Origin: a bacterium | Lineage (GTDB): Bacteria; Cyanobacteriota; Vampirovibrionia; Gastranaerophilales; Gastranaerophilaceae | NCBI GenBank assembly: GCA_017395765.1 | Contig: JAFQNY010000072.1 | Location: 1 to 32,797 of the forward strand | DNA length: 32,797 nt | Direction of reading: 5' to 3' | Part shown: piece after piece, positions 24,050-26,964 of the stretch | Position numbering within the stretch: position 1 is the first letter of the stretch | Layout of the letters: every line of letters starts with the position of its first letter | Made by a program: the position numbers and the translations under genes | The notes under the pieces: model-generated | What the model saw: the letters and a program-made list of their open reading frames with translations, nothing else | Databases searched by the model: none | Told to the model about the DNA's origin: nothing

Positions 24050-24253
24050 TTAGGAGTTTTTATTATTGAGTTTTTTTCTGATAAAAAATTCTAGATAATA
24101 AAACATGATTCCTAAAGATAAGCAAATAGCCAAATTTAGCCCTAAATGTATAATAGGTGGAAAAATTTTCAAGGATTTTTCAGGTCCTGCATAAAACATC
24201 ATTTGAACTAAAAATATGTGCCATGATGCTTTTCCGATAGTTATTAAAATTAA
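24050..24253 (-). pseudogene. C-terminal remnant of an acyltransferase-3 family gene
   Basis: The minus-strand frame ending at TAA 24052-24050 reads about 67 codons. It begins LILITIGKASWHIFLVQMMF and ends with a second hydrophobic helix, then FIRKKLNNKNS. The GKASWHIFLVQ motif and the final helix match the last two membrane segments of acyltransferase-3 (OatA/exopolysaccharide O-acetyltransferase) proteins, normally 330-380 residues. There is no start codon or ribosome site in front, and the frame runs back into the 3' end of the beta-rich gene, where it meets a stop about 8 codons upstream of the similarity. The rest of the gene is not nearby. The 205-base gap between 24045 and 24249 holds nothing else. 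Confidence 0.7.
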
Positions 24254-24882
24254 AAAGCAACACCAACGCCTATGTTAGCACAACCTTTGGTTTGATTTAA
24301 ATGTTTTGAATATCCTGCCTTAAAATAAAGGTTATTTGTAATATTGTGTTTTGCATCAACTTTTACATAAGGAGAGGCTTTTTTTGTCGGATTAGGTCCG
24401 AAACCTGTGAACCAAGAATATCCGGTTTCTAATCCTGCAGACGTTTTTCCGGAATCGGATAAAGCTTCAATACGGCCTCCGACAGAAAAACAACTTGATG
24501 TGAATAAGCGGTTATGTCGGTTAACAAATTCAATATCTGCATCTTTTTCTGAAAGTTGATTGTACTTATAAAAATCTCCTTGCGCTTTTATTCCAAGAGC
24601 AAGGTTTTTGTTTAATGCAACTTCTGTGCCTAAGTCAACTTTGCAACCAAGAGTTCTTTGAATTCCGTTATCAACATTACTGGTAACATTGGTGTTACCA
24701 ATGTTAAAATTTATATTTCCATCAATATTTAAACCGTAACCGGTATTAATTTCTTTTCCTAAATCTATACCATATCTTGTTTGATTATCTGTAAATTCGT
24801 TTGAAGTCCTGACATTTAATTCAAGGATTATGTCATTACTTTTTTGATAATAACCTAATTTATTCTCTCGTGTATCAGTCAT
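24250..24882 (-). CDS. Beta-rich protein without signal peptide
   Basis: A 210-residue protein of alternating polar/hydrophobic strands separated by NT/DN/NG turns (for example KEINTGYGLNIDGNINFNI), ending in ...GVGVAF. The pattern and terminal phenylalanine are like outer-membrane beta-barrels, but there is no signal peptide: the N-terminus is MTDTRENKLGYYQKSND. A strong CGGAGGATTC ribosome site fixes ATG 24882, and no upstream in-frame start would add a signal. I recognise no family. It shares style with the beta-rich protein at 26301-26906, including a NN-[IL]-x-[VF]-x-A-x-x-GYS-like C-terminal phrase. Its stop codon lies inside the acyltransferase remnant frame. Confidence 0.6.
   Translation of the reverse strand: MTDTRENKLGYYQKSNDIILELNVRTSNEFTDNQTRYGIDLGKEINTGYGLNIDGNINFNIGNTNVTSNVDNGIQRTLGCKVDLGTEVALNKNLALGIKAQGDFYKYNQLSEKDADIEFVNRHNRLFTSSCFSVGGRIEALSDSGKTSAGLETGYSWFTGFGPNPTKKASPYVKVDAKHNITNNLYFKAGYSKHLNQTKGCANIGVGVAF
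24684..24706. repeat. Perfect 10-bp inverted repeat inside the beta-rich gene
   Basis: TAACATTGGT (24684-24693), GTT, ACCAATGTTA (24697-24706). It encodes part of an NIGNTNVTSN stretch. A second overlapping palindrome (GGTAAC/GTTACC) uses the same bases. Confidence 0.7.
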
Positions 24883-25820: not shown

Positions 25821-26297
25821 ATGGGTTCAATTTATGACAAGTATAAAAATGATGTAGAAAACTTGACATTAAATAAAAATAAAATGATTGAGTTTTATGG
25901 TTTAATGCGAAAGATGCAACAGCTTGATTATGATGGTCGTGTTGCTTTAATGAAAGAAATGTGGGGTGAACCAAAAGTTTTGCCTGCAACACATTATTAT
26001 GGTGAATATTGCAATGTTGTTGTATTTAAAGAAAATGATAAGTATAAATTTACATTCAATTGTGATAACGGAGATTTTAAAGACCTTCAAAAGGCTTTTC
26101 CGGAATTGGCTGCGGAATTTAAAAGATTAGCTGATGAGAGATTGAAAACTAAACATCCGGAATTATTTGAACAACAGTCTAATGCAGATTCAGAATTGTT
26201 TGAAGTAAATAAGGATAGCGTTTATCTTAATCTTTATAACAACATAAAGATTAATAGAGCTAATCCTCCGGAGAAAAAGGATAAAAGTGACAATTAA
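25821..26297 (+). CDS. Small orphan protein
   Basis: A 158-residue charged cytosolic protein: helical start (MGSIYDKYKNDVENL...KMIEFYGLMRKMQQL), a central stretch with likely beta strands (YYGEYCNVVVFKENDKYKFTFNC) and a lysine/glutamate-rich tail. No domain recognised. AAGGAG 7 bases before ATG 25821 and the extended -10 give a leader of about 13 bases. It converges with the beta-rich gene at 26301, with 3 bases between stops. Confidence 0.65.
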   Translation: MGSIYDKYKNDVENLTLNKNKMIEFYGLMRKMQQLDYDGRVALMKEMWGEPKVLPATHYYGEYCNVVVFKENDKYKFTFNCDNGDFKDLQKAFPELAAEFKRLADERLKTKHPELFEQQSNADSELFEVNKDSVYLNLYNNIKINRANPPEKKDKSDN

Positions 26298-26300
26298 TAC

Positions 26301-26906
26301 TTAAAGTGTCATTTTGAAACTACAGCTCATGTAAACTCCGGTTGTATTGCTGTATCCGGTATTAGCAGAAACTGTAATATTGTTTTTAGGATCTTCATAT
26401 TTTGAGCTGAAGTCTATGTAATAGTTACCGTTGCCTAAATCATATTTTATTGAACCGTTAACACTGTTTCTTTCACCTTTAAAGCTACCGGTCATTTTGA
26501 GTTGCGAAAAATCAATAAAATTCGGATCATTAAGTGATAAATTATAATTCATGCTAACAGAACCGGATAATCCACCCATAGATGCTGTTAATGCAATAGA
26601 ATGCAAGCCGATACCAAAACCATAATTGGCACCGGAGCCGGAACCTGCATTGTTCATATATTCTTGAACTAATGCATCATAATTAATTTGACTGCCACTA
26701 CCGTAGCTTCCTGCACTGCCACAACTACCACATGAACCCATGCGCTCAGCTACCCATTGGTTAGCTTGATCCAATAAATTTTCACCCATTTTCTGAGCTT
26801 GGCTAATAGTATTTTTTACGATACTGGTATTCATTGCATAATTTTTTAAGTTGTTTTCAACAGTCTTCCTTACAGAACTCGGAAGATCTCCATAAGAACT
26901 TACCAT
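26301..26906 (-). CDS. Beta-rich protein under a flagellar sigma-28 promoter
   Basis: A 201-residue protein with no signal peptide. Residues 1-56 are helical (SSVRKTVENNLKNYAMN..., KMGENLLDQANQWVAERMG). A Gly/Ser/Cys linker (about 57-72) carries C59 and C62 as C-x2-C. Residues 95-201 are alternating beta strands, for example SVSMNYNLSLND and GSIKYDLGNGNYYIDFSSK. It is not a flagellin: the conserved flagellin ends are absent. AGGAG 5 bases before ATG 26906 sets the start. The promoter matches sigma-28/SigD almost perfectly and the flagellar operon ends about 110 bases upstream, so a late-flagellar role, perhaps export by the flagellar secretion system, is inferred. Function unknown. Confidence 0.65.
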   Translation of the reverse strand: MVSSYGDLPSSVRKTVENNLKNYAMNTSIVKNTISQAQKMGENLLDQANQWVAERMGSCGSCGSAGSYGSGSQINYDALVQEYMNNAGSGSGANYGFGIGLHSIALTASMGGLSGSVSMNYNLSLNDPNFIDFSQLKMTGSFKGERNSVNGSIKYDLGNGNYYIDFSSKYEDPKNNITVSANTGYSNTTGVYMSCSFKMTL

Positions 26907-26922
26907 GTCATCTCCTATATAA

Positions 26923-26941
26923 ATATATACATGGTATATAT
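26923..26941. repeat. Inverted repeat overlapping the sigma-28 start site
   Basis: ATATATAC (26923-26930), ATG, GTATATAT (26934-26941), perfect 8-bp arms. It covers the end of the -10 element and the predicted transcription start, so it could be an operator or simply AT-rich melting DNA. Confidence 0.5.
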
Positions 26942-26964
26942 CGGCACATTTTTGAATAACTTTA
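26938..26964 (-). promoter_or_regulatory. Sigma-28 (FliA/SigD) type promoter
   Basis: On the minus strand TAAAGTTA (26964-26957), 11 bases, GCCGATAT (26945-26938). The known enterobacterial consensus is TAAAGTTT-N11-GCCGATAA (14 of 16 match) and the Bacillus SigD form is TAAA-N15-GCCGATAT (all match). It lies about 32 bases before ATG 26906 in a non-coding gap. Confidence 0.8.

What the first reader, a model, noticed from the sequence alone, without database searches (positions are those of the whole stretch)
26301..26964. Orphan beta-rich protein driven by a near-perfect sigma-28 promoter
The sequence directly shows TAAAGTTA-N11-GCCGATAT in a non-coding gap about 32 bases before the ATG, with a ribosome site at 26916-26912. 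This matches the known FliA/SigD promoter. The gene is not a flagellin, hook protein or any flagellar family I recognise: helical head, Gly/Ser/Cys linker with C-x2-C, beta-strand tail, no signal peptide. Its position just past the flagellar operon and the promoter class suggest an undescribed late-flagellar product, possibly exported by the flagellar apparatus or coating it. The function is inference.
Basis: partly seen in the sequence, partly recalled or inferred. Interest (0 to 1): 0.75.

Follow-up and report, generated by a model that had tools for sequence, protein, structure and literature searches.

The report
Species-only protein under flagellar sigma-28 promoter
A protein found in only one species of uncultured gut bacterium is switched on by the flagellar sigma factor's promoter, as part of a set of some twenty mostly unnamed, signal-peptide-less proteins that look like cargo of a flagellum-type export machine rather than parts of the flagellum.

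Summary
TAAAGTTA-N11-GCCGATAT (26964..26938, minus) lies 31 nt before a genuine 201-codon gene (26906..26301); no sigma-70-type promoter is found in the gap. The genome encodes a FliA-family sigma factor. The motif marks a real regulon: 22 sites in this genome (reversed control 0) and 5-34 per genome in all 65 same-genus species (control 0 in 144 genomes). One orthologous target keeps it in 26 of 28 species. In four relatives it drives fliD, which identifies it as flagellar.

The interpretation needs revision. The flagellins inspected in this genus (one copy per relative) lack the motif, as does this genome's fliD. The targets sampled are mostly unnamed, signal-peptide-less proteins with Ser/Asn-rich, Leu-poor N-termini typical of type III cargo. 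The gene has no detectable homologue in 143 relatives, and its place past the flagellar operon is not conserved.

Best reading: a species-specific accessory substrate of flagellum-type export, comparable to Campylobacter Feds/FspA. Which machine exports it is open, because relatives also carry a second export-gate operon that flagellin-less genera retain. Export and function are inferred, not shown.

The parts
26957..26964 (-). sigma-28 -35 element TAAAGTTA
   Evidence: sequence; genome-wide regulon motif
26938..26945 (-). sigma-28 -10 element GCCGATAT, 15 nt from TAAA to GCCG
   Evidence: sequence; GCCGATA invariant in an alignment with six promoters of the 330-aa target family
26912..26916 (-). 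ribosome-binding site AGGAG, 5 nt before the ATG
   Evidence: sequence
26301..26906 (-). 201-codon species-restricted gene, stop codon included
   Evidence: ORF; codon usage; no homologue in the 143 other genomes searched, phages or viral contigs
26736..26894 (-). residues 5-57, amphipathic helical head; residues 2-31 are 37% Ser/Thr/Asn/Gln, possible type III export region (inferred)
26622..26735 (-). residues 58-95, Gly/Ser/Cys linker with C59-x2-C62 (26732-26721) and a short predicted helix
   Evidence: sequence
26304..26621 (-). residues 96-201, beta-rich tail of about eight predicted strands ending YMSCSFKMTL, resembling an outer-membrane beta-signal
   Evidence: (low confidence)

Best explanation
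The gene is a species-specific accessory member of an expanded FliA (sigma-28) regulon in a flagellated genus of Gastranaerophilales. Shown: FliA-family sigma present, canonical promoter at the right distance, regulon-wide conservation of the motif, a coding ORF, no Sec signal, no detectable relatives. Inferred: FliA-RNA polymerase transcribes it as a short monocistronic unit once FliA is active; its Ser/Asn-rich N-terminus and helical head take it unfolded through a flagellum-type (type III) export gate; the beta-rich tail folds outside the cell, as a surface or released factor facing the gut environment, host or neighbours. It is cargo rather than a structural part of the flagellum. Likelihoods: FliA-dependent transcription about 0.93; type III export by either gate about 0.55; surface beta-domain function about 0.3.
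For: Promoter and FliA. All 65 genus genomes have 5-34 matches with 0 reversed-control hits in 144 genomes. FliD, a known late flagellar gene, is driven by the motif in 4 relatives. The 330-aa target family keeps the motif upstream of its start in 26 of 28 species examined, mostly 60-64 nt away (two lack it; 23 pass the stricter score cut-off). Sigma-28 targets against other ORFs of the clade: hydrophobic N-terminus 1/88 against 131/651 (p 4e-7), S/T/N/Q in residues 2-31 0.288 against 0.214 (p 5e-12), Leu 0.070 against 0.108 (p 1e-8); the orphan has 0.37, 0.067 and no hydrophobic stretch. Targets in relatives include other beta-rich, signal-less proteins with aromatic beta-signal-like ends, one with a Gly/Ser/Cys linker (L172, L161). 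This genome encodes a flagellar gate FliR-FlhB-FlhA, FliF/G/H/I in the window and flagellins.
Against: No transcript or secretome data. No homologues, so no selection analysis and no reliable fold (pLDDT 43; best Foldseek E 0.09). Ser/Asn enrichment extends beyond the N-terminus of the targets (0.250 against 0.206 after residue 31), so it may reflect composition rather than a signal. FliA regulons elsewhere include cytoplasmic proteins, and one target here is a GAF/HD-domain protein. Target and background sets were gathered by different rules and from overlapping but not identical species, and related targets from several species were counted separately.
Confidence: 0.55

Rival explanations
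1. Same regulon, but the cargo belongs to a second, flagellum-derived type III system (fliE, fliF-like, an unknown protein in FliG's place, fliH-like, divergent flhA) that the family keeps even where flagella are lost; FliA links it to the flagellar programme.
For: A second full-length FHIPEP gate (~725 bits) in the genus genomes read; in family f1 all 14 flagellin-less genera have only this lower-scoring gate, while the 7 other flagellated genera have a higher-scoring one. It forms a separate clade from flagellar FlhA, support 100, in a conserved five-gene operon. The flagellin-less genera keep a FliA-family sigma and 6-12 copies of the target superfamily. A CCGATA element like the -10 precedes fliE2 in three of four genus loci.
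Against: The motif is rare (0-5 hits) in the flagellin-less genera. The fliE2 sites are weak and inconsistent. The second operon of the window's own genome was not read: three FHIPEP matches are reported there and one was read. No needle, secretin or delivery is known.
Confidence: 0.2
2. A late flagellar structural or coat protein that decorates the filament or forms a sheath or cap.
For: FliA promoter class; fliD shares the motif in relatives; no signal peptide.
Against: Present in one species only while all 65 genus genomes have flagellins; inspected flagellins and this genome's fliD are not on this promoter; beta-tailed architecture unlike flagellin or hook-associated proteins; no flagellar family match.
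Confidence: 0.1
3. A cytoplasmic FliA-regulated protein of unknown role, not exported.
For: FliA regulons include regulators; one target in a relative is a GAF/HD-domain protein.
Against: Gly/Ser linker with an amphipathic beta tail; class-level type-III-like N-termini.
Confidence: 0.12
4. Chance motif before a recently arisen or spurious ORF.
For: No homologue anywhere searched.
Against: Codon usage, RBS, and position 31 nt downstream of a near-perfect motif with 0-1 control matches genome-wide.
Confidence: 0.03

Closest known systems
Campylobacter jejuni Feds and FspA (non-flagellar proteins expressed from sigma-28 promoters; PMC9856085)
   Same: Sigma-28 promoter, non-flagellar product, export by the flagellar apparatus shown (FspA) or proposed
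   Different: No sequence similarity is claimed or tested; in C. jejuni secretion (FspA) and colonisation roles (Feds) were shown by experiment; here the target set is larger and export is inferred only
Canonical FliA/SigD late-flagellar regulon (fliC, fliD, flgM, motAB; textbook knowledge)
   Same: Same promoter consensus TAAAGTTT-N11-GCCGATAA; fliD is a target in four relatives
   Different: The flagellins inspected and this genome's fliD lack the motif; most sampled targets match no flagellar family
Small outer-membrane beta-barrels (OMP_b-brl, OmpX-like)
   Same: About eight predicted amphipathic strands, beta-signal-like C-terminus
   Different: No signal peptide, no family match, C-terminal Leu instead of Phe, model unreliable

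Membership tests
FliA/sigma-28 promoter | TAAA, 15-nt spacer, GCCGATAA-like -10 | tested here: met
   TAAA-N15-GCCGATAT
FliA/sigma-28 promoter | cognate sigma factor encoded | tested here: met
   TIGR02479 229 bits, cut-off 189.6
FliA/sigma-28 promoter | motif drives known late flagellar genes | tested here: inconclusive
   fliD in 4 relatives yes; own fliD and inspected genus flagellins no; flgM and motA not searched
FliA/sigma-28 promoter | transcript start at the motif | not testable with these tools
   no RNA data
Sigma-28-dependent flagellar-secreted proteins (Fed/FspA type) | sigma-28 promoter and non-flagellar product | tested here: met
Sigma-28-dependent flagellar-secreted proteins (Fed/FspA type) | secretion depends on the flagellar type III apparatus | not testable with these tools
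   only N-terminal composition available
Flagellin / hook-associated protein | matches a flagellar axial protein family | tested here: not met
   no flagellar Pfam or NCBIfam match
Sec-dependent outer-membrane beta-barrel | N-terminal signal peptide | tested here: not met
   no hydrophobic N-terminal stretch
Sec-dependent outer-membrane beta-barrel | barrel fold | tested here: inconclusive
   eight strands predicted at pLDDT 43; best Foldseek E 0.089

The most novel reading that the evidence does not exclude
In this genus of non-photosynthetic gut cyanobacteria the flagellar sigma factor has been largely turned over to a fast-evolving set of type III cargo, with flagellins outside its control, and that cargo can pass through a second flagellum-derived export machine that flagellin-less relatives keep; this gene is a species-private member with an exported beta domain.
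Probability: 0.25. Interest if true: 0.85.

Novelty: new variant of a known kind. Interest (0 to 1): 0.58.

Why it matters
If true, an uncultured, widespread gut lineage exports a species-variable set of unnamed proteins under flagellar control, giving candidate host- or neighbour-facing factors in a group for which I found none described in the literature searched. A retained second gate in flagellin-less relatives would be a further case of flagellar-type export without a flagellum. The motif is sharp enough to list such proteins directly from any genome of the genus.

Tried and rejected
Homologue searches for the orphan: 144 genomes including its own (one match at E 0.003 over residues 22-74 in G035, with two stop codons, judged chance), six-frame phmmer over all loci held at the time, phages, viral contigs, PDB sequences, Pfam, NCBIfam, PHROGs. 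Relation to the neighbouring 210-aa beta-barrel-like ORF: none. Cys in a Gly/Ser/Ala/Thr linker as a regulon-wide trait: not significant, 6/88 against 30/965, p 0.11. Rfam elements in the window and flagellin contigs: none. Conserved position past anmK: no. Fold of the 330-aa core target: long helices at both ends (pLDDT 77) but no significant PDB match; the top hit, the Salmonella hook-filament junction, has E 0.19. One family search failed on bad coordinates and one fetch on region length. The promoter score used on upstream regions is a hand-made weighting, changed slightly between scripts.

Full report
What is there. The minus strand of the window at 26964..26938 reads TAAAGTTA-N11-GCCGATAT. 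TAAA and GCCG are 15 nt apart. The -10 ends 31 nt before the ATG of a 201-codon ORF (26906..26301), with AGGAG at 26916-26912. The ORF has coding codon usage. The gap between anmK and the ORF holds no sigma-70-type site on that strand. The downstream gene (25821..26297) is convergent, so the unit is probably monocistronic.

It is not chance. In the window's genome (1.83 Mb, 237 contigs, 86% complete) the fixed bases TAAAGTT-N11..13-GCCGATW occur 15 times against 1 for the reversed control, and the longer consensus with up to 3 mismatches 22 times against 0. Across 144 genomes every one of the 65 members of the genus has 5-34 matches, and the reversed pattern has none in any genome; other genera of the family have 0-6. 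The pattern was shaped on sites found in this genome, so its count here is partly circular; the counts in the other species are not. A FliA/WhiG-family sigma factor is encoded.

What the motif drives. I read the first supported ORF after each site in this genome and in three relatives for which blocks of sites were fetched, G038, G035 and G013, plus single loci from others. In G035 and G013 the fetched sites are part of each genome's matches, and the targets in most other genus members were not read. In that sample the targets form recurrent families (42, 51, 52, 59, 119, 130, 156 aa and a 330-aa family) and many one-off proteins. Of 83 targets scanned, four are FliD, three match calpain-type peptidase at modest scores, and most match nothing. 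FliD identifies the promoter as flagellar FliA type. The 330-aa family was checked at 28 same-genus loci: 26 carry the motif upstream, mostly 60-64 nt from the start; 23 of these pass the stricter score cut-off.

What it does not drive. Flagellin upstream regions of this genome (three with enough sequence) and of 20 same-genus species (one copy each, although genomes hold 5-19 flagellin matches) show no strong motif within 400 nt. Some outgroup flagellins do (L292, L294). This genome's own fliD lacks it and has a sigma-70-like TTGAAA-N17-TATAAT instead. Other flagellin copies, flgM and motA were not checked.

The protein. No Pfam, NCBIfam, PHROG or PDB-sequence match, and no homologue in 143 other genomes including 64 of the genus. 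It has an amphipathic helical head, a Gly/Ser linker with C59-x2-C62 and an alternating beta tail. The AlphaFold model, made without homologues, gives helices and eight strands at pLDDT 43 and supports no fold assignment. Two targets of G013 (L172) and one of G035 (L161) have a comparable beta-rich, signal-less build with beta-signal-like ends, without sequence similarity.

Export. Compared with 651 other ORFs of the clade, 88 targets almost never have a hydrophobic N-terminus (1 against 131) and are richer in S/T/N/Q and poorer in Leu over residues 2-31. That fits type III cargo but is not a demonstration; part of the enrichment runs through the whole proteins, and orthologues were counted separately.

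Position. In the anmK loci of relatives whose output I could read (part of it was cut), the genes that follow anmK differ between species. The place past the flagellar operon carries no weight.

A second gate. Every genus genome I read for this holds two full-length FHIPEP proteins. Within the family the 14 genera without flagellin hold only the lower-scoring one, and the 7 other flagellated genera hold a higher-scoring one. The two form separate clades. The second lies in an operon fliE, fliF-like, an unknown protein, fliH-like, flhA-like. The flagellin-less genera also keep a FliA-family sigma and members of the superfamily of the 330-aa target. Whether the sigma-28 cargo uses the flagellum or this second gate is open. 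I did not read the second operon in the window's own genome.

Known relatives of the idea. Campylobacter jejuni Feds and FspA are sigma-28-dependent non-flagellar proteins, FspA being secreted through the flagellum (PMC9856085). Flagellar gene sets, complete in some Gastranaerophilales and partial in others, were noted earlier (PMC4040986, PMC5877343). I found no paper on type III secretion or a sigma-28 regulon in this group in the library searched, which holds open-access papers only.

Noticed in passing
L361:5080-11063; L363:9085-15107; L366:8981-15115: Second flagellum-like export operon (fliE, fliF-like, unknown 338-360 aa protein, fliH-like, flhA-like) in flagellin-less and flagellated relatives; the unknown protein has no Pfam match.
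   Followed up: partly
L321 (G000:C159:1835-2530): This genome's fliD has a sigma-70-like promoter where four relatives have the sigma-28 motif.
   Followed up: partly
L121:675-1682; L152:409-1818; L007:3-935: Sigma-28 targets that by eye resemble a lytic transglycosylase with an EF-hand-like start and calpain-like cysteine proteases, without signal peptides.
   Followed up: no
L075, upstream of position 1491: Run of 14 G upstream of a large flagellin-like gene, a possible phase-variable tract or assembly artefact.
   Followed up: no
L046:1428, L148:2002, L032:5982, L045:2912: Very short ORFs (42-59 aa) after sigma-28 promoters, recurring in several species (clusters).
   Followed up: partly
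window 24250-24882: 210-aa beta-barrel-like ORF (OMP_b-brl, below cut-off) with no evident signal peptide, near the finding.
   Followed up: partly
L305-L319: Several flagellin upstream regions in the genus share an inverted repeat (AGTTAGAGAAATTTCTAACT-like) and no sigma-28 site.
   Followed up: no
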